Assembly (NCBI GenBank): GCA_030141605.1
Contig: JAQGDQ010000015.1
Coordinates: 124,001-188,000, forward strand
Direction: 5' to 3'
DNA from: Tubiluchus corallicola
Taxonomy: Eukaryota > Priapulida > Priapulimorpha > Priapulimorphida > Tubiluchidae
Length of the DNA: 64,000 nt
Shown here: positions 1 to 59,605 of the stretch, piece by piece
Layout of the letters: each line of letters starts with the position of its first letter
How positions within the stretch are numbered: the stretch's first letter is position 1
Notes under the pieces: model-generated
The model's database searches: none
Told to the model about the DNA's origin: nothing
Seen by the model: the letters and a program-made list of their open reading frames with translations, nothing else
Program-made: the position numbers and the translations under genes

Positions 1-1569
1 TGGCAGCAGCAGGTACTGGTTAATTTGGAAACCCATGGTGTATAATTGAAAAACTTGGTTACATTTCAAGCTTAAGGATTCGACATGAAAGTGAGCTGAT
101 AAAACAGGCCTGTGGGAAGGAGAAGCCCTGTGACATAATGGTGAAGCAAAACTCCTTACAGCGCACATTTTTTTACAAAAATAGAGCTGTAAGCCTGTGT
201 CACAGACATAGTGGTATTACTGCCATGCAGAATAGTTTTGACGTTCGCGCAGACATTCAGACAGACGCACAGTGTTTTTTCTTTGAAAAAAGTCAGTAGC
301 AAAGAAGCAGTATATTTGTATTGGGTCCTAAAGGCGTGCAGCTATGCAAAATAGTTTTGGCTTGAAATTTAAGACAGTGGCTTTACTTTAGTACTGAACT
401 TAGAGGAGAAGGGGTAGATTAAAGAAATGTGAGTCGTAGTGCGAAAATATTTTAACTAATGAGAATAAACTTCGAGGAAGGTTACTGTTAAGGTGAGTTT
501 CTGGACTTAACATGTAGGTGGCAACACCTATGTGAACGTACCTGTAATTTTATCTGTGAAGTTGTAAACTAGGTTGAGCCTCACTAAACACGCTTACAGA
601 AGCCTCAGTAAACATTTAAGTAATGTTTAGATAAATTTTCGAGTAATTACTTGTAGCTTATCTACCTGATTTGCTGTAAACCAGTATGACGTTCCAAGGA
701 TGTATTAAGTTGTTATAGCCGCACAATGTGAGTAATATTTACGTTTATTGTCTTAAATTATAATAATTAGATCATTATACATTTGTAAGCAGTGAAAGCA
801 GTCAAATTTACTATTTTCATTTTTTTATATATAGAAATAAAGATTTCTGAGAACACCATATGCTATGGAGGAAAGTCTTTTGTGTTCCGGTCACATTTAT
901 TTATCAAGGCTATATTGGAGATAATTCAACGTCAGCCATACCCACCTGAGGTTTCAAGCCATCGAGCCGCCCAAGTTGATCAAGGTCAGGAAGCCTACAG
1001 CACAGATGTATAACTGCATGCCGGAAGTAGGACAGGAAATGCGTCTACGCTTCTCAGGCCTGTATTATGTGAATTGCCTATTGACAAGACTTTTAAGAAC
1101 TGTATCTGTATGGTGAACTGACCTGAAATACTAACCTACTGCATAAAATTATTGCGTTAATTTTGCGCATAAAGTTATTAAGCCATTAAGACTTGTAAGA
1201 TTCGCTTAGGCTGTTTAGTACTGAAGTATTGAGGGTTTAATAGTTTAATAATAGGGTTTAATTAAAGTTTTGAAATATTCAGAGTTTACCAATTAAGATT
1301 AATTTTATTTTCGACTTGGTATTATTTCCACATGTTAGTATAGAGAATAACGTGAATTTCTACACTGTCAGATAATGCTTTGATTTGTTGTACAGTTTAC
1401 CCGATTGCCTAATTACTAGTAGTGCAGCAGTGCATTATAGTGCATAAAGAATTAGACCATACGTTATCGTTGCTATTTGACTACATGGATTTTTATGCAT
1501 AGTTCACTAGTTTATCTACTTAGCTACCTGTATTATTTTACTGAATTGTACTTTGCTGTATTTTGAACC
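1..1569. other. Non-coding flank upstream of the gag remnant
   Basis: No gene is supported here. The stretch is AT-rich and the only open frame (792-1013) resembles no known family. It should contain the leader and 5' LTR of the gag element that starts at 1570. However, no sequence here matches the possible LTR start just after the gag (about 3780), so no LTR pair can be drawn. Confidence 0.4.
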
Positions 1570-3758
1570 ATGTCTGATTTAGGTAAGAAAACTGTCCCTG
1601 AGATACAGCGAATGCTTAAGGACAAGTGTTTACCTGTTAGCGGGCGGAAGCAGGAATTAATTGATAGGCTGTTGCAAAGCGAAGGCGCAGCTTCCAGCTC
1701 AACTGAAGATGAAACGCAGCTTACACCTGCCGCTATACCTTATAGTGGGGACAAAGAGGAAAGCTTAGGCGAGCTAAGAAGCCTCAGAACGCACAAAAGT
1801 CACAAGTCTCCTCATTCACGTAGTTCAAAATCAACCACTGCTTCGGCAACAGCACAAAGAATGTCAGCTGAAGCGAAAAAGGCTGCTCTTATGATTAAGC
1901 AACAAGCACTTGCAGAGAAGACAAAATTGCAGTTACATGAAATGCAGCTCGAACAAGAAAAGCAAAAGTTAGTTTTGCAAAAAGAACAGTTGAAGATAGC
2001 TACTGAAATTAAGCAAGCAGACGCTGAGGCAACTGTCTTTGCTCAGTTTGAAGCCGGTAGTCCAGGTCTTTCCGGGGTCGTTTTCTTTGTTGACAAAAGG
2101 GAGCAAACAAGAGACTGGGTAGCAAATTACTGCCAAGATAATAACACTAATTATGAGGAATCAATTGAAGTATATATATCGTTGGCCACTAATGACGTTT
2201 ATGCCAAAAGTGCCCTTGTTTTAGCACATTCTTTGAAGGCCACTGGGACCAAACACCCATTGGTTATCATAGTAACGAATGAAGTTTCCTCATTAATGAT
2301 ATCACAACTTGACACTGTTTATGACAAAGTTGAGCTTGTTGAAAGATGGGAGAACCAAAACATAGATACGCAGCTTCTTCGTGAGCGACCCGAACTACGC
2401 TGCACTTATACAAAGCTTCACTGCTGGTGTCAGGTGCCATATGCCAAGGGCATATTTCTTGATGCAGACACATTAGTTTTGCAGAATATTGACGAATTAT
2501 TCTTGTATAAAGAATTTTCTGCTGTCACCGATGTTGGTTGGCCACACATTTAATAGCGGTGTGTTTATATTTGAACCAAGCATGGAAACTTACGCCGAGT
2601 TATTATCGTTTGCAAACACTCAAGCAAGTTTTGAAAGACGTCTATAACATGACGTCTGCAAAGTCCTGTACTTACTACTCTACGCTGGAGATGTATCGAG
2701 ATCAAGTAAAGATAGTTCATTTTATTGGTCAAGATAAACCGTGGTACTATAAGTTCGATATTCAGACTGAGGAGGTTTCTACTCCATTGTGCCATAATGT
2801 ACAACATGATAGGCAATTTATCAAAATGTGGTGGAAATTTTACACAAATAAAGTGGAACTTGCCTTGGCTCCTCAGACACGCGCAAGAGATTTGAATGTT
2901 CAAGCAACACATTTTAGGTCCACCTTCAATGTGCCTTCGGAGAGCGACTCGTTTCTTTCTTATGCTCATAACAGATGGCAAGAAAGGTCTTATAGTCCTA
3001 AGGAGCAACCAGGAAGCAGTTCCTTTCAGGCACCTTTACGTGCCACGCAACCTGAAATCAAAGGGAGTCCTATGCCAGCAGTACAACCCCCTTACCAGTT
3101 TTATGGTTTTCCATTGCCTGGTATCGAGATAGAGAAATTCGATGGCAGCCCGTTGCAGTATTGTCGCTTCATTAAACAGTTTGATACAACGGTTAAGAAT
3201 TACACAACTGACAACATTGCCAGATTAACACTCCTTCAGTTTTGCAGTGACAAAATAAAACGTTATATTGACGTGACTATGGACCCAGTTGTTGGTTACA
3301 CAAAAGCAAAGCGTATGCTAAAGGAGCGGTTTGGAAATGAATTTAATATCACTCAAGCATGGATCAAACAGATTTCGGATTTCAAACCCATCAAGGCTGC
3401 GGAATATCAGACATTACAGGAATATGCAGACTTGTTGCGCACTTGTTGTGAAACTCTGTCAAGTTTAAGTTATTTGTCAGAGATTAATGCTCAAGAAAAT
3501 CTCGTACAAATCGTTGACAAATTGCCCATTGGTATTCATTCTCACTGGAGGAAAGAGGTTCATAATATTAAATCTTCTGGGAGAATTCCAGACATCTTTG
3601 ATGTTGTTACTTTCATAGAAAGACAGGCACAGATTGAAAATGAGCCCACGTTTCATAGGAAACCATCCGAGAGGAAGGACACCTATAAGCCTAAACCAAA
3701 GTCTAATTCTGCAAACATTTTTGCTAGTTCTGGAACATTTGCTAGCGATATGGTCTAA
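1570..3758 (+). pseudogene. BEL/Pao-like retrotransposon gag remnant with SAP domain, interrupted by a glycogenin fragment
   Basis: The reading frame opens with MSDLGKKTVPEIQRMLKDK, a SAP-type helix-turn-helix (about residues 5-38). A Ser-rich linker and a Lys/Glu/Gln-rich coiled coil (about residues 95-160) follow. The distal part, in another frame from about 3100, reads LPGIEIEKFDGSPLQYCRF and runs through a domain like DUF1759, the gag domain of BEL/Pao elements, which packages element RNA. Between the two lies a host-derived glycogenin segment (2167-2865). The N-terminal part is in the frame of 1570, and the distal part is in the frame of 2538-3758, so no single protein can be made. The gag stops before any zinc knuckle, and no protease, reverse transcriptase or integrase follows. 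It is therefore a dead, gag-only fragment. A domesticated gag gene is the alternative, but the frame breaks argue against it. Confidence 0.75.
2167..2865 (+). pseudogene. Intronless glycogenin (GT8) fragment embedded in the gag
   Basis: Glycogenin is the self-glucosylating GT8 protein that primes glycogen synthesis. The segment starts near EVYISLATNDVYAKSALVL, matching the glycogenin N-terminus. It includes TKLHCWCQVPYAKGIFLDAD with the Mn-binding D-x-D at codons 298-300 of the upstream frame. In the next frame come FNSGVFIFEPSMETYAELL and, further on, VHFIGQDKPWYYKFD and MWWKFYT, all glycogenin landmarks. The copy carries no introns, so it derives from spliced RNA. It is broken: the frame shifts once near 2548. 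A second break near 2640 coincides with loss of the stretch that normally holds the conserved D-Q-G loop. It has no start or end of its own; gag sequence runs directly into and out of it. Confidence 0.85.
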
Positions 3759-20320: not shown

Positions 20321-20336
20321 GGTATATATACAGCAT

Positions 20337-21127
20337 ATGAATCAATCAATAGTCATCCTGTCAGACAGCCAGGCGGCTATTAAAGCTACTGAAAACAATA
20401 CAGTAAAATCTATCTCGGTTTTACGTTGTGTTGAAAACTTGAACATACTTGGAAAAAGAAACCGAGTCTTGGTTACATGGATTCCTGAACACGAAGGAGT
20501 ACATGGTAACGAAGAGGCGGACAAGCTTGCTAAAAAGGGATCTGAGCTCTCTCCGGAGGGACCAGAACCCTATCTGCCCGTCCCTTATGCTAGCTGTGTC
20601 TATGCGATTAAGGGATGGAGTCTAAAACGATGGGAAACGTCGTGGAATAATCGTGAGGACTGCAAGAGAACAAAGGAACATGTGGGCTGGGCCTCGGCCC
20701 GAGTCTGCAATAGGCTCCTGAGTCTCAGTAGAACTCAACTCAACATGGTTATACAGGTCCTAACCGGACACTGTAATCTCCAAAAACATAAAAAAACCAC
20801 TTGTCGAGCACAATCCGCGATTTGCCCGAAATGTGGTCAGGAAGACGAAACACCGGACCATCACGTGGGACGATGCACCGCCTACCAGGGTGCTCGTATC
20901 AAATGTCTGGGAAATAAAAATACAACACTTAGAGCAGTTGTAGAGAACTTAAACCTGAAAAAACTAGCGGCGTATCTGAAGCAAGCTGGAAGGCTTGCCG
21001 AGTACGACCAATAGACGTATAGCAGTGAATAATTGCAATGGGCCTGTCGAAGGCCTCAGCAATGTGTCGGGGGGTGGGATTTTTCCATCCTATACAATCT
21101 CCCCGACACCACTGCCCCCCTAATCTA
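20337..21127 (+). mobile_element. 5'-truncated LINE: RNase H domain plus C-terminal zinc finger, with 13-bp target-site duplication
   Basis: An open frame at 20337-21014 (225 residues) holds the distal half of a non-LTR retrotransposon RNase H. SIVILSDSQAAIKA carries one catalytic Asp, and WIPEHEGVHGNEEADKLAKK carries the conserved His and the last Asp. The first catalytic residues are lost to truncation. A tail typical of I/R1/Jockey-like elements follows, with CPKCGQEDETPDHHVGRC as a CCHC-type finger. The frame is open and ends at a natural stop, so the insertion looks fairly young. ATATATACAGCAT occurs immediately before (20324-20336) and after (21128-21140) the insert, a 13-bp target duplication. 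The 3' UTR contains a GTCGGGG..CCCCGAC stem (about 21066-21108). The ATG at 20337 is created at the insertion junction and is not a true start. Confidence 0.85.
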
Positions 21128-23299: not shown

Positions 23300-25450
23300 A
23301 AAACTCCTTCCAACAACATTCAATAATATTCACAACGTAAACAGTGACGGAAACACTAATAACAATCCTACAAACAAAAAGTTTTTCTCGTTCTGTCATT
23401 CCAACGTATGAAGCCTCCTAGCAAACAACGAATCCTTTAAGTTGGACGAGTTGCAGTTAGTCATTAACACCAACAATTATGATGTCATTGTTCTGATAGA
23501 AACATGGCTAGATCAGTCCATAGCAAACGATGAATTTCGTCTTTCCGGTTTCCAAGATCCAGTCAGAAAAGATCGGGACAGAAATGGTGGTGGAGTAGCA
23601 TTTTATGCGGCCAATCACATACATTTTAAAACAGAATGTTGCCACAGAATCTGTTTGAATTAATGTGGGTAGAGATCAGTTTAAAGGTTAACACACTCTA
23701 TATGTGCATTTGTTATAGGTCCCTATCCCAGGATGCAGCAGGTGAAGACCGATTTACTGCAGCACTAGATGAATCTTACACTAACCTACTAAACTCTCAA
23801 CCTAAGTCCCCGTATAGCATTGTATTTGTTCGCGACTTTAACGCCACATGTAAAGCCTGGGACCAGGCAGAGCTAAATGAAAATCCAATGGGCTCTAAAT
23901 TAAATCATTTCGTTGTACGAAATCAATTGTTCCAGTTAATTACCGATCCCACTCGAGTAACTCTGTGCTGGATTTGATTATCACAGACTCAAATAGATTA
24001 TTTACTAACTACGGTGTGCTTCCACAAATCTTTACATGCGATCATGACCCCATTTTTGGGAAAATTCGTGTCAAAATTCCAGTACGTCATGCTTTCAAAA
24101 GAAAGGTCTATAATTATAATTTAGCAGATTGGCCAGCATTAAATCAACAAATCTATCAGAAATTTTAATTACGAACCCTCATTCAGTTATGCAACTGGTT
24201 CTAGTACAATTGACGTTATATGAGCTACGCAAAGTTTTTCTGCCCAACTTTATCAGCAATATGTAGAGAAAGATACGGAGCTCTTTCCGGGAGCACCCCA
24301 AATGGGCCACTTTGTCATGCGTCATGCTTTCAAAAGAAAGGTCTATAATTATAATTTAGCAGATTGGCCAGCATTAAATCAACAAATCTATCAGAAATTT
24401 TAATTACGAACCCTCATTCAGTTATGCAACTGGTTCTAGTACAATTGACGTTATATGAGCTACGCAAAGTTTTTCTGCCCAACTTTATCAGCAATATGTA
24501 GAGAAAGATACGGAGCTCTTTCCGGGAGCACCCCAAATGGGCCACTTTGTTGTTAAAAGCAAAATTAAATGTAAAGTATGGGAAAATGATAAAGTAATTG
24601 GTCGTGTGTACGATTTTAAGACTAGTGATTGGTACAGATGGTCAGGTGTTCTGGAACGTAAAGTAAGAGAACAATTTCATGAACTAGCTCAATTTACTTA
24701 GGCCAACGATGTTCAAAGTGCTTGGGTACAGCTTCAAAAGCTCATAGCAAATGCTAACGAAGAAGCACTAAATAAGAAAACGATAACAAAATTTAGCAAA
24801 CCTTTCTGGTCCAGTCAATTAGCAAAGTTATATAATAAAGATGAGACTTTGCAGGAAAAATTACCTACAGATGTCCAATTGCGAAAACAAGCAAACGGTC
24901 GGATAGAAATTGATATGTGTAAATGCAATGCAAACAGCCAAACGCCAGAGCATATAGTTTTTAACTGTCCTCTAATAAAAGACGAACTCAGAATGAAACT
25001 TGAAACTGCACTTCCATCTAGGCAGCTTAAGGATATATACAGAATAAGAAGTAGAAATGCTATTGATGCACTTGCAGAATTTGTTAAAAATGCTAAAGAG
25101 GAAAATATAGCCGAAAAAACGTGGAGTTTATTTTTAAAAATATGAAGTCCGGTTACTGCCATTTATTATAATTAGATTGCTTCCCGTCAATGAAAATGTA
25201 AAAGTAAGAGTTATTTACAAAATTAGGTAAATATAAATTTAAATGTAAATCTAGCTATGTTGCTTATAGTTGTTGATGTGTTTTTTTATATAACTATTTT
25301 ACTGTTATCACAGTCATCAGTGATATTAAAAGGGATAATTGTAATTATTTTCAAACTTATTATAAAAGTGTTCATACTTGACCCTGCAAATAGAGGGAAT
25401 TTATGTATATTATGTATGTATTTATGTTAATATATATAATAAAATAAAGT

Positions 25451-40161: not shown

Positions 40162-43100
40162 CTACACAAGGTCAAACCTTAACCGTTCCCGTGTGCTGTC
40201 ATGTGACCGACTTCGCGACCTGTACGAACGACTTCGGCTGTCTGATCGACTTCGCGAACGCTTCCGTCTACGATTAGGTGATCTACAACACAAGCAACAA
40301 ATCATACCAAACCGTTAAAATACAACATAGAAAATTCACAAAGTAAGATAAATGTATTCAAGTATTAAATGCCTCAGTTTAGGAAAATGTTTCTCCTAGA
40401 CTCTCTACTGTTACCTGGACCTAGACCTTCCAAGATGGCGCTGACGTGAACCCGATCTTGACCTGCTTCTTGACCTTGAACTTGAGCTCGATGATGAACT
40501 GTAAAGCAAATGAAAAAAATTCAGCGAAAGGGGCAAATATCCCAAATTTAGACGTTCCTAACTCAAAAGCAAGTCTAAATCAACAGTAAATCAAATTACT
40601 GCTTGTGTGACAGGAAATTTTAGTTAACTAGTTATAATAATTATGTAACAAAGTAACTACCTTTATCTAAAACACTGTTGCATGAGTCTGCCAATTTAAT
40701 CCAAATAAAAAGTACCGTGCAACAAAAAAAATACAAGTGAAATAATGAATTAATCACTAATTCATACTCGCTGGTCGAAGAGTAGGAGGAAACTGAGCGT
40801 GACCATGATTTTTGTCTGTCTCTTTCATCACTTTTCTTCTTTACAGTTATATCATTATTGTCATCATCGTCATCTAATTTATACTTTGAAATATCTACGT
40901 TGTCATCCTAAAATAGCAAAATGTGCAACCATCAAGTCATCAACTCACAAAATAGCAACCAGCTTGAAAAAAGTGGACATATTTTTGCATTAGCTCGAAA
41001 AAGACATAAAACCAAAAAGATGGCAGGAATAAACCTTACGGGCACCTATTCACACCAAGGCCAGCGCCAGTATGACAACACTAAACACACACATGGATAA
41101 AGAAGGTAAATGGCTGTACTATTTCTGATAGCAGTTACTACTAGAGCACATATTTGTCTATTTTGCTGCAATGGCAATTTACTGTGTAAATGTTAACATG
41201 TAAAAGTAAAAACGAACAAATGAGGCCCCACTTTTTTAAACTGATTCTCAAGAAAATGAGAAAAGAGCCAGTTTTTTACAGCAGCTTTCATATTGAAGAT
41301 GTGATTCGAAACTCAAGTTATCTTTGCAAATTTTACATCAACATACTACAACACTTGAAAAAATATGCTGATATCTACTTTGTCACACTACAAGTAAACA
41401 AAGCACTTCAAGGTTTAATTAACATGCAATATTCCACAGACAGAGGGGGCAATATTTTTTTTAATAAAAATCCCGAGTCGTGAGGCTTTTATTATGACAG
41501 TGATCATTAACAATCAAATTTTTGCTACCTAATTCCAATTAATGAATGTCATACGGCTTAAATAAAACAAATATTATAAAAATATGTTACAAACTCTGTT
41601 TAATTGCAACCTTATAACCTGATAATTCTGAACAAAACATCTTACATCATCATCACTCTCCAACTTGTATTTGGACAAATCTCCATCTTCTTCGTCCTCC
41701 TCTTCTTCCTCATCAGGTTCTGACGGTTTGGCAATGATAGAGCGCTTTAGTATCTCTTCCTGAACTTCTGCCCGTTTTTGTTTTTTGATTCTCCCAAACT
41801 GCAAGAAAATTGATATTCAGGGTGTTGATGCCCTAACAACTTTTGTCGATCAGTTAAAATTTAAACAGTAAAATTTATATGTACGCCACATTCGAAGAAA
41901 ATTGAAATGGGAACACTAAACAAGTTCTACTGTCAGCAAAAGTAGCACAGATACATAAACAAAAATGTTAAAAGAAAAAAATTCTCAAATTAAACAAATT
42001 CAATTGTTACACTTATTCACTAAGTAATGTAATTTGTTAGTTAATTCCAATAACTTATGTTAATAATGTTTTAACTATGTCACACAAATTGGAAAAGTAA
42101 GAAGAGTCTCACCTAAATTTTGTAACAGATAATAACTGTTGAAATAGCTACATTTCATAGTCACCGCAGAAATTTAAATTTTTCGTTTTACATAGCACTA
42201 CTCAAAACCTGAGCTCTGCATACATTAAGATTACATGTAGAAATTGTAATGCAGATTTTTGAGCTGCATGTGAATTCACTCCTTTTGGACAAGTAACATG
42301 CATTAATATGGCATTATTATTTTTCTAATTAACAACTATTCGTTTTCAAATTTCTAATGCAATTACTGTACCTCATCATACATGTCTTCCTCGTCCGACT
42401 CGTGTCGATTATACTCAACATTTTCTCGTTCGTTAAATCCACCTCCTAAGCCGGTTCTCTCTTCAACCGGGCCAAACTTTGGAGCATTGCATACATTGCA
42501 ATCTTTTCTACGAGCCCAGTTCACATTGCCACACCTAAAAACATTTGTAAAATACTAAACTTCAAAAATTGATGCAATATGGGCAAAAACAGAACATTAA
42601 ACACACATGTTTGTACATATTCATTTAGATCACATGAAAAACAAGTAAATTAATAAGGCACGTAGAGTAAACACTAAAATGCTTTTACAATTATTACCAC
42701 AAGATGGTAGTTAAAGTTATGTGCTTTTGGTGGTTACACAATCATGTACTTTTTTTAACGAGAAACAGGCCATGAGCCCTGCTGGCAGCTTAAGCTTGAA
42801 TCTCTCTATTCACACAGAGTGAGGTATCAAGTGATTCCACATTGTTCAAAAAGTAGTAATACTATTTTAACTAAGCTTATTTTCACAAACCAGCTCTAAA
42901 GTACGCAGGCTTAATAAGAGGTAAAAATAACTAAATTCACCATCTGCTGCCTTAGCTAATTGCTAAGGTTACGAGTGATGCATTATGTCTGCTCTAAAAG
43001 ACCGACAACTAGCTAAAGTGTGTGTAGTAGGTTCCACAGATCTCTTGGACAATACTGTGTAGAGACAACAATGCCACTTCATTATACCACTACACTTTGT

Positions 43101-46100
43101 TGCATTTTCTTTCAAAATTTCCACATAGAAAATATGCCATACAAAGCAATTCACTGTTCTAAATAACTTTGCTTTGGTCTAAATGTTTAAAAATACTTTG
43201 AACATTGCCAATCGTCAGCACTAAAAAGACCACGACTTTTCTCTGCCATGGCTTTCCCGATCTCTATTCCAGCTTTCTTTAGTTTTGGTCCAGCAATTGG
43301 CTTCTCTGTAAGATTCAGAAGTAAGATTCAGACTAATTACAAACAACTACATGCCTGAAAATGTAAATAAAATTAAATCTCATGTATACAAATTTATACA
43401 TGTTACATTAAAAGGCAATAAATTAATGTATAGCACCAAATAAAATTCAACACTATTTTACAGAAGTTTCTTTTATTTTCACAATTAGTTTCTATGCTTA
43501 CAAACTTGTGCGGGACAAAGCAGTTTTAAATATTTAGTTATTGCAAAATAAATGAAGATAATGTCTTCAGCGCATGGTTACGTTACAAAGTGAATGCGAC
43601 CATTTTCAGTAGTGATTATGAATATGATTAAGACAATAATCACCTCAGAGCTCAAGAACATGCTGAAATAGGTGAAATTTTGTACATGTATTACATTTTT
43701 CTGTAAAATTAATGTAAAATTATACAGCTGTTATTAAACATTTATTTAAAATTAAAAAAAAATTAAAGTCATTAAAATCGAAATTAGTAGAAATTAAAAT
43801 CTAGTAACTATAATCCACATTTTTTATTATTGTGAATATAATTTAAACAGCAGTTGAACATGTGATTATCAATAACTGTAACTACTATGATTCTCTCAAA
43901 GTTCTGCAGACTGAAACACGGTCAACATATTAAAGAAAAAAATCAGAAATTCTGAAGGAGGGAAAGGAAAATAAAAAATACAAATAAAAGACAGACTAAA
44001 AAGCCACAGTTACGGCTCTGCCAATGAGGAAACAAATGTAACGTAAAGATAGACTTGAGTAGCATAATGTAAAAATATCAAACACAAGTATTGCCGGGAT
44101 TTCTTACAAAGGGCCATATTCCCAATGTAAACGTCATAACACAATACATAAATACCATTAAGTTACTTCAAACACCAATGATTTTCTGTTCTGTCTGTTT
44201 TAGAAAATGTTTCATTTAGAATTTAGTACATGTCAAACAATAAGGTTATGTATTTTACGTGAAAGATTTTAACCGAAATACATGCATTACTATCAACCAT
44301 TCCCTTAAAGCTTAAAGCAACATTAAAACGAACTCATTAACACATATGTAGCACAAATAGCCTTCTATTATTCAGAGTTACCTGCACCACATCTGTTGCA
44401 TGTTGATCTGCGAGCAAAATTGACATTACCACACCTGCAAAATAGAACTAAAAATTGAGCAAAATGGTAAAGAGAAATTCCTGATTAAAACTTGTTGCCT
44501 GGTTGACTCCACAGCTACCTTTATAAGCAGAAATTATTTGGAATATAGTTAATAGTTGATTTAACAACTTAGATACCAACTTAGTTTTATCTTACCAGTT
44601 CTGCTGTTTTGGCATAACTGTTTTGGCTTAGAATGTAGTAGCAAAATCTAACTTACAAATAACTGAAATCTGCAATCTTGATTCGGATGATATAGACTAG
44701 CAAAGATTAAGATTTTTTTGTATGGGCTAGAAAAAAATGGCTGAATGTACAGGGAGTGCATATCTAATAGACTTTTGCACTCAAATCAAAGATCTCTTGA
44801 AAGGTGAAAGGGTGTATTTGAAACTCAAAAGAACTGAGACCCGTGACATTCGTGCCTGGTAGATGTGGCAGATGTTACATGTTGCATAAAGAAGCATGAG
44901 AAAGTCCAAAGTTTTGACAGGGTTGACTTATAGCTAGTGTTACAAAAATAGCTTTCATACAGAAGCTGGCTCAGAGTCACACAGACAGTGCACTCAGCCA
45001 ATAGTTCAGAGAAATTTTGAATTAGACATACAGTCAAATTCTTTGTCTTTAATGTGAGTTTATGTCACGCTAATATTTAGACATATTTTCATTTACAATT
45101 TCCCATAATAAATAATACTGAAATTAAATAAAAAACAATATTTATAAGGAAACCTCTCAAACTGAAAGACAAAGTATCTTTTTGTACATTAAAAGAATAC
45201 GAAATCTGGTATTATTTCAATATACAATCAAACGTATGAACATCAATACACTAATAACTTGTCTGTTTAAAACTGATATATTTACACACAATAAATTGAT
45301 TATACATAGCCGGTTGAAAGAAAAATGCATGAGCTTAACAACCATGTTATCGAAAATAAACCAGAGAAAAAGTTTTATTGCAAAATTAACATAGAATTCA
45401 AGAATGAAATTACGTGCTGTTCATAAGGTTTGCATGCATCATAAACCATTAAATATATTATAAATTTTTCAATTATTTGCAATGAAAGACTATAGAAACT
45501 TTACAATACAATCACATATTTTCTGTTTAGAAACCTAACTCTACAAAAAGCTTTATCTAAAAAAGGACACTTTTCAGCAGTCTACAAAATGTTTTCTAAA
45601 CAGGAAATTATTATTTAACGTAAAAAGGTAAATCATGTGTAATCAGAAATGCATACAGTTTAAAAATCTTGCAATTAAAATTCAGTACTTTATCAGATTA
45701 ATTTCAACACTTTTCCAAACTGTGATGGAGAAAGGTGGCTTTTAAATGTTTCCTTACCCAATGAGATGAAGGCAGCCCTTTTTAATGGCATTTCAATATG
45801 GTTTTTCAGTGCAACTTTTTTATTTTGTTGGTACATATGATTCAACAGTTCTTTGATTAATCGAATAAAGAACCTTGGATTGGAAGCAGGTTTTGATGGC
45901 AGTTGCTTCGTATATTGATTCAACCAATAAGCAATACGCATGGCACTTGCTTGAATGTTAGCTCTTATAGCTAACAGTGAGTTAATCTGACTATCAACAT
46001 TAATAATGCTGCTTTTAAGGCATACTATGCTTTTCATTCGCTTTTTCAAAGCCACACCTGGATTTAAAACTGAATTGATGCAAGATACGTTGCCTCCTGT

Positions 46101-49100
46101 ATTTTTAGGCCCTTCACTGCCTTTCAAATGTATTTGCAGAGTAGTAGCATTTAGAGCAATACCGCAGTAAACAACGGGACCATTCTCTACGAAGGAAACC
46201 TTTCCAATGTACTTATGGTAATATGGAAAATTTGTTAGCAACTTGTCCAAGGCAATCATGCAGTTGTAATCTTCAAAACCACGTATCATCAATTCAAGAA
46301 AGTAGTGTGCATGAGAAAGTGACGATGTGACAAACAGATAGTCATCTACCTGCCGCATAAGCAACTCCTTTTCATTGTCTATCCAGCTGAAATACTCATT
46401 TTCCATTGCACCGTAATATATATCACAAAGAATGCTAGAAATGATTGATCCTTGACATATTCCATGAAGCTATGTGTAGTATTTGCCACTATGCTTAACA
46501 ATAACATTATCCAAGTGTTTAAAAATGATGTTTTGTAATTCTTCTTTACTAATTAAACGTACTCCATTTGTTAAGCTATAGATACCAGTCCTACCCCTTG
46601 ATTGCTCCTGGTCTACAATGTGAAAAATATCAAACCCAGTCAAACTGTCAGTTACGGTCTGTTTTACCTCCATATGTTCTCCATTTAAACTGAATCGCCT
46701 GTATTCCCAGATAAAGTATTGTTCAGACTGCAAAGTTTTCATCACTATACTATACAGCTTTCTTCTCAACATTGAATCAAAGCATTTAGCAATGTCTGTC
46801 TTCACAACATACAGACGTCTACTGTCTTGTCGCTGTGTGTAATTAGTGTAGAATTCTAGCCAATGCCGATGAATATCATCGAAACCTTGTACTGCAAACT
46901 TACACACCCATGGCTGTCTATTCATTTCATATGTGAGAACAACTTTGACACTTGACAAAAGTTTTGCGACTGGTAACTTATATGCATTACCAAGCTGATC
47001 ATTCGTATTCCAGTTAAAGATCGGACGCAAGGAACTCTTCTTAGGCAAAAATCTCAAATGAGCAACTCCAAGGGCATGCCCAGAAGACAGCAATGCCACA
47101 ACTTCTTCTTCAATAATGTTTCTTAAGTTACTGGAACAATAGTCAGTAACAGCAATCTTACTTATTTCTGTCCACCTTTGTGTTGTATAATAACGAACTT
47201 TGTGAGCCACAGAGCTACAGTCAGTAATGTAGAAACATGATTTCAGTGTAGAAACAACTACATTGTTGAAAAGCCACCAAACCACTCTGGCAATTATAGC
47301 TGCTTTTTCTTCATGCACATCTGCAATTGCATTTAGCCATTTGCAATGATTAACTCTGAATTTCAACATCATCTGTCCAAGTGTCATACTTTGGCCTTTA
47401 TGCATTCTAACAAATTTAGTTGCTGCACGAATAAATACTTTGTGATTATGCTTTGTGCCGAGCAATTTCAGGGGTACCACTTTCCGAATAATGCCGCAAA
47501 TAAACGATGAAACAAATTTGGAGTTCACATGTGCATTCAAAAGATTAATCAAATATGCATTTGACTTTGCTTCGTTCTCATTAGACTCACTGTAAGCAGT
47601 TGGCGTTGTACAAAAATGATTTTCACTGTATGTGTTCACTTCACGATCTGAAGTATGCACTACTATGTTTTCAGCTTCATTATTGTCGATGTTCATGATT
47701 AAATCTACTACATCATCTTTGGCTTTTTCTTCAGCTTTCTCCGGGAAAAGATAAATCTTTTGTTTGAAATAGTGGTTGCAAATACATGCCACATTGCATT
47801 TCCTACAGTTTTTCAACAACTGTGAAAAAAGTTCTATAACTGGTTCGGGTTTGCTTAACAAAAGCAGCTGTAAGTGACTGTCAATAACATGCTGAGGTAC
47901 AACTTTGGCTGTCTGTCTTAAATTTCTGAAGCCTTTGTTCAAATCCACACTGAAAATAGATTTCAAAAGACCAGCAACTGTTTTATCAGGTAGCTCACTA
48001 AACAGTAATGCACGACTTTTACCCACATATTGACCCGTATACATTATGGTGTTCTTTTTAATACTTAAAAAGGGACAGTAAGGTCTAGCAGGAAAAGAAT
48101 CTTGTTCCACAGTTTTAGCTTTTTCAACCTTGTGACAGTTCCATCTTTTGCCACTTCTTCTAGTTTTCTTTTTCACCAAATCAGTGACAGAAGCTGCTTT
48201 TTTCTCTTTTCTCGTATCACATTGTGACAGCACTTTATGTACAGAATTTTCTAAATACTTTCTAGCCCCTTTTCTGAAGATACATTTTCTAGTAGTCTGA
48301 AGACCCTGAATGGAATGCACATTGCCTTTTGCATATTTGGAAAGCTCTTCCTCTGCTTCTCTTCCAGACGTGGAACACTCAACCAAAGATCTTGACATAG
48401 ACATGACATTAACTGAATCGGATCTCCTCCCAAAACTTTTCCAATCAAGCCATTTATAATAAAATGAAGAACCAAAGACCTGTATGTAGCACGATGGTGG
48501 TACACAAATGAATATATCTGCGTACTCCAACAAATGCATCATTAATTGGTCACCTATTTTCTTATGTAATTTTTTCATTGTGGAAGATTTGGCATACGTT
48601 TCAGACATGTTTGTATTCTGATTACCGACATCACTGCCTTGAACAAGCAAGTTTTTCGTACATCGGCGACTGAGCAATCTAGTTATAACAGTGTGCACTA
48701 AATCATTCGTAGTCATTGTCTGTTGCAAACTTATGTTTGTTAAACTGGGAATTGTAGAAACTAAAACAAATAGATGACTTAATAGATCTTTCAGTTTACT
48801 GCAGGTCTTTCCATGGTAAAAATGCTGATCATCAAGTCTTGTGTCTAGATAATGCAAGTACGAAAGAAGTGGCTCAATTCTGTATTGTATAGTCATTGTG
48901 GCATTCTTCCAGTTAACTTTTGTAGTTTACTCTAGTCAGTAGCAGAGTGGAACAGCATTTGAGAAACTAAATTCAGAAAAAAATTAAGTCAATTGAACTT
49001 TTAACACTTTTTGGAAGAGAAAACAGTAGCAAAAAAGTCCCTACTCAGTATCCCATGTCTGAAAACATACTCCAGACAAAAAATATTATTTACCCCCAAA

Positions 49101-50772
49101 TGTTTTCTTACCGGTCCACTTTTAGATTCTTTCGTTGAACCTGTGGCTATGCAGCACTGCACAGCAAAGAACAACAGCTATATGGTAAGTATCAGCAAGT
49201 ATTGAAAATGTCAGACAAGGCCCGCCCATTGGACCGGTTCTATGCGGTATTTCAATGAATAATATTACAGACATAAAAAGTCACCCTGTTAGTATGTTAG
49301 GTCCATATTTACAGATAGGTATGCTGTTATACGTAGACATTGTATTATCTGCTAACAGTGCAAAAATGGTAACAAAGCTGTTGAGAATTTTAGAGAAACA
49401 GAAACGCAAAAAAATGTTGTCATTTAATTAAAAAACAAAGCATGTGACTAATATGACAAAAAAACAAAATACAAAAGAATTAGTACTGAATGTAAAGATT
49501 GGACAAATAAAAACGAATATAAATATCTGGGGGACTGGTTTAACACTAAAAATAATTGTCATCAGATATTTGAAAAAAGAAGCGGGAAAATGAAATTTAT
49601 AATATCTGAGATATTGGCTATTGGTAGTGAAACAAAAGTAAGTTCTTCTGTACCAGCAGTACGTTTAATTATATACAAAAAAAATGGTTGTTCCATCTAT
49701 AACAAATAATAGCAAAACCTGGACTAAGCTCACTCAAACAGAAGTAGATATGTTAGAGAGCATTCAGAGAGACATGTTATGAAAAATCTTGTGCCAAGAA
49801 ACAGAACGCATCCTGGAGAATGCTAGCTGAAATGCAGACATGGGCTATGATATGTAGAATAGAATGTAAAAAATAAATGTACTATCACTTATTATTATAC
49901 AATTTAATGAATTCAAATGATAAAGGTTGGCTAAGCAGGTTTTAAGAGTAAAAATAAGTAACAGTTTTAATAAATATTGGTATTCTGAAATTAAAGATAT
50001 TATGATTAAATACAAAAATGTCCCAAATGTAGTTGATATAAATTCAGTGAAAAAGTCTAAATGGAAGAAATAACTTACATAAAATGTGAAATTAATTTGT
50101 TTAGTAAAATGAGCTTAAAATTAGAACAGAGAACATGAAAAAATTAAGATTTCTAAAAAGCAACAGTTTTCAAAGGCAAGAATATATGTTAAAAATAAAA
50201 TGTTGTTTAAACGAGATAAGAGAAATTACAGCCATAAGGTTAAACATGATTGATTGATCTAAAAGTAAATTTTAAAAATTTGTATAAAGAAGACTTGAAA
50301 TTCTCATTCGTCATTCGTCATTTTCCAAATGATACTACAGAACACATGTTTGAACGTAAGTCAATATACGTTAATAAATGGGGATCATCTATGCAAGATA
50401 TTAGTGATATCCACTATTTATTATTATCCATTTAATATTAGTGATAAATTAAGTTCGATTGTATATCACAGAGCTCACGCAGCTAAAAGTGTAATGAAAG
50501 ACGAGTAAACAGTAGTAGTAATTGTAGGTAGGTGGAAAAGAAGAAATTTATGTGTACAAAATACGTGTTTTTGATCTTGCAAACAGGCACTTTTTATTGA
50601 TGTCAGTTTGCTCGCCGATTTGGTGAAGAGGATCGAGTATATCGTTACGTTACTGCACGTACGCCAGCCAGCTTATTGTTTTGTGGTACACTTACAATGG
50701 ATCAGTACAAATCCAATCTCCATCAGAACCTTTAAAGTTTGGCTTGAAAACTTCTGTAACTTTATCAGCCAT
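40162..50772 (-). CDS. ZRANB2: ZRANB2, zinc-finger Ran-binding-domain splicing factor (eight exons)
   Basis: ZRANB2 is a nuclear SR-like protein whose two RanBP2-type fingers bind single-stranded RNA at 5' splice sites. Exons on the minus strand: 50696-50772, 44382-44434, 43197-43305, 42372-42534, 41646-41798, 40768-40907, 40415-40498 and 40162-40282. All borders are GT-AG with matching phases, giving 299 residues. Finger 1 spans exons 1-2: GSDGDWICTDPLCGNVNFAR, then RSTCNRCG. Finger 2 spans exons 3-4: SADDWQCSKCGNVNWARRKD, then CNVCNAPK. A GGGFNERENVEY block, an acidic stretch (EEEEEDEED; DDDDDNND) and a C-terminal Arg/Ser domain follow. This is the vertebrate layout at slightly shorter length. 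Intron 1 is 6.3 kb and contains a complete TERT reading frame and a LINE remnant. The start is the ATG at 50772, which opens finger 1 at the expected distance. Confidence 0.93.
45693..48896 (-). CDS. TERT: Telomerase reverse transcriptase, intronless, with one in-frame TAG
   Basis: TERT adds telomeric DNA using its RNA template. A single frame of 1,068 codons is open except for TAG at codon 809 (46470-46472). Landmarks in order: TEN domain with NDLVHTVITRLL and PPSCYIQVFG (about residues 132-142); RNA-binding domain with KFVRMHKGQSMTLGQMMLKF and motif T (NVVVSTLKSCFYITD); motif 1 HLRFLPKKSSLRPIFNW; motif A LYVVKTDIAKCFDSM with Asp701; motif B' HGICQGSIISSILC; motif C RQVDDYLFV with Asp851 and Asp852; and a C-terminal extension ending FGKVLKLI. 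All three catalytic Asp residues are intact. The stop sits six codons before GICQGS, where human TERT has Gln (CAG to TAG would explain it). The gene lies wholly inside ZRANB2 intron 1, same strand. No poly-A tract or target duplication marks it as a recent retrocopy. Identity is very sure; whether it is functional is open. Confidence 0.9.
49215..50450 (+). mobile_element. Decayed LINE fragment (reverse transcriptase end to C-terminal finger)
   Basis: Degenerate frames read RQGPPIGPVLCGISMNN-like sequence, LLYVDIVLSANSAK (the catalytic pair degraded to V-D-I), EYKYLGDWFNTKNNCHQIF and SKTWTKLTQTEVDMLESIQR. Near 50320 comes RHFPNDTTEHMFERKS, a damaged zinc finger. Order and motifs match the better preserved copy at 54950-56330. 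It carries many stops and shifts. It lies between ZRANB2 exon 1 and TERT, opposite in strand to both. Confidence 0.65.

Positions 50773-58867: not shown

Positions 58868-59605
<738 letters not shown>

What the first reader, a model, noticed from the sequence alone, without database searches (positions are those of the whole stretch)
45693..48896. Intronless full-length TERT nested in the first intron of ZRANB2, same strand
TERT genes of most animals have introns. Here TEN, RNA-binding, RT and C-terminal domains lie in one 3.2-kb block inside another gene's intron. Either the lineage lost all introns, or TERT was replaced by a reverse-transcribed copy, possibly as the only copy. Same-strand nesting means ZRANB2 pre-mRNA contains TERT, with possible effects on expression.
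Basis: partly seen in the sequence, partly recalled or inferred. Interest (0 to 1): 0.8.

Follow-up and report, generated by a model that had tools for sequence, protein, structure and literature searches.

The report
Only telomerase gene, with premature stop
An arthropod genome assembly carries one telomerase protein gene, without introns and nested inside another gene, but its reading frame as assembled contains an internal stop codon in the catalytic core, so it needs resequencing before anything is concluded from it.

Summary
The block is a real telomerase reverse transcriptase (TERT) gene: 48896-45693, minus strand, with TEN, RNA-binding, RT and C-terminal matches and no introns. It lies in the 6,261-bp first intron of ZRANB2, on the same strand. 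It is the only TERT found in the 343.5-Mb assembly. The 258 codons behind it are otherwise intact, so the TAG is very recent, an error, a null allele, or recoded. A processed pseudogene is disfavoured: so intact a copy would have to be young, yet no poly(A) tract or convincing target-site duplication was found. Intronless TERT is already reported for aphids, Lepidoptera, Bombyx and Tribolium, so that part is not new. No long TTAGG or TTAGGG arrays were found, so telomerase use stays open. Verdict: a single-copy intronless TERT with an unexplained stop; modest interest until reads are checked.

The parts
45693..48896 (-). TERT coding block, ATG at 48896, TGA at 45695-45693, 1068 codons including both stops, no introns
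   Evidence: ORFs; Pfam; PDB matches
46470..46472 (-). in-frame TAG stop, codon 809, separated by two codons from the G of RT motif B' (GICQGS)
   Evidence: alignment to human and Tribolium TERT runs through it without a gap
46473..48896 (-). first open part, 808 codons: TEN/GQ region, linker, RNA-binding domain, RT part with motif A
45696..46469 (-). second open part, 258 codons: motif B', catalytic VDD (motif C), following RT motifs and C-terminal extension (motif names recalled)
44435..50695 (-). ZRANB2 intron 1 (6,261 bp), host intron of TERT
   Evidence: splice sites and joined CDS
50696..50772 (-). ZRANB2 exon 1 (ATG at 50772)
   Evidence: zinc finger match to ZNF265
44382..44434 (-). 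ZRANB2 exon 2 (rest of the first zinc finger)
40162..43305 (-). ZRANB2 exons 3-8 with their introns
49189..50040 (+). decayed LINE-like fragment in the same intron, antisense to TERT (label by eye; weak RVT_1 match below cut-off); neutral contrast
   Evidence: 6 stops in one aligned piece and one frame change between aligned pieces; RVT_1 E 0.0021, 18.2 bits against cut-off 29.6

Best explanation
This is the organism's own and probably only telomerase protein gene: an established intronless TERT in the first intron of ZRANB2, read in the same direction. Its product would be a normal TERT: a TEN/GQ region for primer handling, the RNA-binding domain for the telomerase RNA, RT motifs, and a C-terminal thumb, adding telomere repeats from an RNA template. 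It presumably has its own promoter and is transcribed separately from ZRANB2 (inferred). Shown here: domains, nesting, single copy in the assembly, and a frame intact except for one TAG. Inferred: that the TAG is a base error or a recent null allele in the sequenced animal(s), not a fixed feature, because everything behind it is still intact.
For: TEN_TERT, Telomerase_RBD and TERT_C pass Pfam's cut-offs. No gap at the TAG against human and Tribolium TERT. One match each for the N-terminal part and the C-terminal part, and one of three listed PF12009 matches over the cut-off. One stop and no frameshift in 1067 codons before the terminal TGA, while the LINE-like fragment in the same intron has 6 stops in one aligned piece and a frame change. 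Under neutrality the tail should show another disabling change beyond about 2-4% divergence, the whole CDS beyond about 0.5-0.9% (95% level, with assumed indel rates). ZRANB2 and DPM1 in the same window have intact frames.
Against: The TAG is in the assembly and no reads could be checked. The assembly seems to be from long reads (inferred: no N in the window), whose errors are mostly indels (recalled), and the neighbouring genes show no errors; a pure base error is therefore less likely. The planned error check on another gene family did not complete. TERT_C passes its cut-off only narrowly and RVT_1 does not. No long TTAGG or TTAGGG array was found, so telomerase use is not demonstrated.
Confidence: 0.55

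Rival explanations
1. The TAG is real and fixed: TERT has been lost very recently in this lineage and telomeres are kept by another route.
For: The TAG cuts off the catalytic VDD and thumb; only TERT copy found. No long TTAGG or TTAGGG arrays in 343.5 Mb: six-unit arrays match at 270 and 79 positions; the 100 TTAGG places listed (6 contigs) and all 79 TTAGGG places (13 contigs) lie inside contigs.
Against: No further disabling change in 1067 codons. 170 TTAGG positions were not listed. Telomeres may be unassembled or use another motif; the TCAGG request did not complete.
Confidence: 0.2
2. Young processed pseudogene; the intron-bearing parent gene is missing from the assembly.
For: Intronless, one stop, sits in another gene's intron; assembly completeness unknown.
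Against: Such intactness demands an age under roughly 1% divergence, but a young retrocopy should keep a poly(A) tail and target-site duplications (general knowledge). The 3' flank has no A-rich tract beyond shuffles (best 9 A in 12; 65% of shuffles reach it). The 15-nt direct repeat 45124-45138/49424-49438 at 93% flanks the gene but has no A-tract beside it (by eye). No second copy by three searches.
Confidence: 0.12
3. The UAG is recoded (translational readthrough or RNA editing), giving a truncated and a full-length TERT from one mRNA as a control point.
For: Intact tail behind the stop; the stop is followed by C, a 3' base that PMC5100048 tracks among readthrough candidates (passages read); sole copy found.
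Against: No stable RNA structure after the stop (z +1.45; 186 of 200 shuffles fold at least as well). Readthrough candidates usually have TGA (PMC5100048, passages). The truncated product would lack the catalytic VDD. No relatives to test conservation of the TAG.
Confidence: 0.07
4. The TAG is the end of a small intron that is spliced out.
For: TAG could serve as an acceptor; in-frame candidate donors exist upstream.
Against: Poor pyrimidine tract: 0.43 against 0.62-0.76 in the seven ZRANB2 acceptors; the best in-frame donors within 1500 nt fit only 4 of 7 consensus positions. It would delete sequence that aligns to human and Tribolium TERT up to the TAG.
Confidence: 0.03

Closest known systems
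Intronless TERT genes of aphids and Lepidoptera (PMC5405514), Bombyx and Tribolium (PMC10590340 citing Osanai 2006)
   Same: No introns in the coding sequence; arthropod TERT
   Different: Here a TEN/GQ match is kept, while PMC5405514 says arthropods lack the GQ motif and PMC13023368 (passage) says beetle TERT lacks TEN; PMC10590340 (passage) implies that Apis TERT has introns and a GQ motif. This gene is nested in ZRANB2 and has one in-frame TAG.
Human TERT (PDB 7qxa and others)
   Same: Best PDB match of both halves, E 1.3e-38 and 2e-30
   Different: Human gene has 15 introns (PMC5405514) and an open frame
Tribolium castaneum TERT (PDB 3du5)
   Same: Aligned through the TAG position and the catalytic VDD
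   Different: No TEN domain (PMC13023368); scores lower against this protein than human TERT does (52 against 118 bits) and is absent from the first-half list at E 0.001

Membership tests
Telomerase reverse transcriptase (TERT) | Telomerase RNA-binding domain | tested here: met
   PF12009, E 3.1e-28, 99 bits against cut-off 25
Telomerase reverse transcriptase (TERT) | RT motifs with catalytic aspartates (motif A D, motif C DD; motif names recalled) | tested here: met
   aligned to the human stretches around VKVDVTGAYD and LVDDF; RVT_1 itself below its cut-off, 18 against 29.6 bits
Telomerase reverse transcriptase (TERT) | C-terminal extension | tested here: met
   PF21399 27.7 bits against cut-off 27, marginal; human alignment runs on to residue 1044
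Telomerase reverse transcriptase (TERT) | TEN domain (not universal in arthropods) | tested here: met
   PF11474 32.3 bits against cut-off 25, over 52 residues only; structure model uninformative, pLDDT 38
Functional TERT gene | uninterrupted reading frame | tested here: not met
   in-frame TAG at codon 809
Functional TERT gene | expression and telomerase activity | not testable with these tools
   no reads or assays
Processed pseudogene | intact or intron-bearing parent elsewhere | tested here: not met
   only one copy found in the assembly; completeness not given
Processed pseudogene | poly(A) tail and target-site duplication | tested here: inconclusive
   no A-rich tract beyond shuffles in the 1,258-bp 3' flank; short AT-rich direct repeats only
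Nested gene in a host intron | host gene intact around it | tested here: met
   8 exons, GT-AG, 299 aa; best PDB matches are ZRANB2 fingers 1n0z and 2k1p; Zn_ribbon_RanBP in two stretches

The most novel reading that the evidence does not exclude
The sole TERT gene of this arthropod carries a fixed in-frame UAG inside the RT core that is recoded at a low rate (readthrough or editing), so that catalytic telomerase is made only when recoding is switched on, while the default product is a TEN plus RNA-binding fragment.
Probability: 0.06. Interest if true: 0.8.

Novelty: new member of a known kind. Interest (0 to 1): 0.35.

Why it matters
If the stop is real, a sole telomerase gene is either being lost now or is controlled by recoding; both would be valuable natural cases. 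If it is an error, this is one more intron-free arthropod TERT, with the added detail that it keeps a TEN-type region and lies inside ZRANB2.

Tried and rejected
A second TERT copy: none beyond chance. The two weak RNA-binding-family hits (E 1.08 and 7.33) contain stops; around the first, no TERT-like ORF was seen by eye; the second was not looked at further. Haplotig with the tail: none. Readthrough structure: none. Intron removal of the TAG: weak sites. Poly(A): no tract beyond shuffles. Telomere arrays: (TTAGG)6 gave 270 positions (control read backwards: 117); the 100 listed lie in 6 contigs, all interior; parts of L015, L016 and L018 were read and are degenerate pentamer satellites. (TTAGGG)6 gave 79 positions (control 0), all listed, in 13 contigs, none at a contig end, the nearest 0.9 kb from one. 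Relatives in viral contigs and genome contigs: none. Rfam and tRNA scans of the window: nothing (the tRNA scan used the bacterial setting). COX1: none in the assembly, so no mitochondrial placement. Structure of the first 165 residues: pLDDT 38, discarded. NCBIfam: no hit for the first half, weak RT hits far below cut-off for the second.

Full report
What is there. The six-frame listing shows two adjacent open stretches in one minus-strand frame, 48926-46470 and 46469-45693. They match TERT: TEN_TERT, Telomerase_RBD and TERT_C pass Pfam's cut-offs (TERT_C narrowly), RVT_1 does not. Human TERT is the best PDB match of both halves. Reading from the ATG at 48896, codon 809 of 1068 is TAG (46472-46470) and the frame ends with TGA at 45693.

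The stop. Searched with the stop read as X, the tail aligns to human and Tribolium TERT straight through the site with no gap; human has Q and Tribolium W there. Two codons (L, H) separate it from the G of motif B' (GICQGS; motif name recalled), so the catalytic VDD and the C-terminal extension lie behind it. There is no notable RNA structure after it (z +1.45). As a splice acceptor it is poor: pyrimidine fraction 0.43, against 0.62-0.76 for the seven ZRANB2 acceptors.

Age of the stop. The 258 codons behind it have no further stop before the terminal TGA and no frameshift. With 5.2% of single substitutions nonsense and assumed indel rates of 5-15% of substitutions, another disabling change would be expected at the 95% level beyond 1.9-3.8% neutral divergence of the tail; for the whole coding sequence the figure is 0.5-0.9%. 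In the same intron, a LINE-like fragment at 49.2-50.0 kb (label by eye; RVT_1 E 0.0021, below cut-off) shows 6 stops in one aligned piece and a frame change between aligned pieces. So the coding capacity was selected until very recently, or still is.

Nesting. ZRANB2 exon 1 lies at 50772-50696 and exons 2-8 within 44434-40162, all on the minus strand. Exons were placed by eye; joined at GT-AG sites they give an open frame of 299 residues. Its two zinc fingers match the solved fingers of ZNF265/ZRANB2 best (1n0z E 4.7e-14, 2k1p E 6.8e-11), and Pfam finds Zn_ribbon_RanBP in two stretches. Intron 1 is 50695-44435; TERT begins 1.8 kb behind exon 1 and ends about 1.26 kb before exon 2. ZRANB2 keeps seven introns, so intron loss is not general at this locus. 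A DPM1-like gene at 58868-59605 is also one intronless ORF; its next matches in the assembly are at most 41% identical.

Retrocopy marks. The 1,258 bp between TERT's TGA and exon 2 hold an AATAAA at 45379 and no A-rich tract: the best 12-mer has 9 A, which 65% of shuffles reach. Direct repeats around the gene are short and AT-rich.

Copy number. The assembly (343,548,820 bases, 2344 contigs) gives one match for the 807 residues before the stop (initial Met left out), three PF12009 matches of which one passes the cut-off and one match for the C-terminal 258 residues. No haplotig or intron-bearing copy was found. Completeness is not given, and some contigs may be bacterial (inference), so absence is not proof.

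Telomeres. Six-unit TTAGG arrays occur at 270 positions (backward control 117); the 100 listed lie in six contigs, all interior; 170 were not listed. TTAGGG gives 79 positions (control 0) in 13 contigs, none at an end. The whole counts leave little room for kilobase-long perfect TTAGG arrays and none for TTAGGG in the assembly, but telomeres may be unassembled or built of another motif.

Which animal. Fuseless and a gustatory-type receptor (7tm_7 E 1.7e-12) point to an arthropod (family distribution recalled). The best odorant-receptor family hit is weak (32.1 bits), which hints at a lineage without typical insect odorant receptors; this is inference. The species was not identified.

Comparison. 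PMC5405514 (sections 18 and 19 read, plus passages) reports no introns in aphid and lepidopteran TERT, one and three in two crustaceans, and says arthropods lack the GQ motif. PMC10590340 (passages) says Bombyx and Tribolium TERT lack introns. PMC13023368 (passage) says beetle TERT lacks TEN. PMC11976694 (passages) describes a termite TERT with exons numbered to 10. PMC8048687 (passages) reports a mirid bug without an identified telomere motif. So intron-free arthropod TERT is known; the retained TEN-type match is a mild surprise. One paper search for ZRANB2, telomerase reverse transcriptase and nested together found 0 papers; a broader one for nested genes, retrocopies and TERT listed 7, none with TERT nesting in its title or abstract start. 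No other search was made on the nesting.

Verdict. A single-copy intronless TERT nested in ZRANB2 is confirmed in this assembly; an in-frame TAG in its RT core was overlooked and is the main open question. Error or recent null allele is most likely (0.55), recent loss next (0.2), young pseudogene 0.12, recoding 0.07, splicing 0.03.

Noticed in passing
1567-3758 (+): Two overlapping ORFs look like a BEL/Pao-type gag (SAP domain in front, gag-like part behind; BEL/Pao label recalled) with a glycogenin-like Glyco_transf_8 stretch in between: possibly a host gene captured by a retrotransposon.
   Followed up: no
58868-59605 (+): A DPM1-like glycosyltransferase (Glycos_transf_2; DPM1 label recalled) is one intronless ORF; the other 15 matches listed in the assembly are at most 41% identical.
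   Followed up: partly
L048-L050 (contigs C981, C279, C1799): Intact 245-266-residue open frames of the same glycosyltransferase type at 41% identity may be bacterial, so the assembly may hold bacterial contigs (inference, not tested).
   Followed up: no
L031, L032 (contig C1672, 49,415 bp): TTAGGG arrays sit at mirror-image positions 1818-1913 and 47503-47598 in opposite orientation, as if the contig were a palindrome (fold-back read or real inverted repeat).
   Followed up: no
L015, L016, L018: Degenerate pentamer satellites (TTAGG, TTATG, GCTAT, GGCTA types) inside contigs, telomere-like in part.
   Followed up: partly
24085-24550: 235-bp tandem duplication, 2.0 copies at 100%: very recent duplication or assembly artefact.
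   Followed up: no
20322-21014 (+): RNase H domain ORF, probably of a non-LTR retrotransposon (by eye).
   Followed up: no
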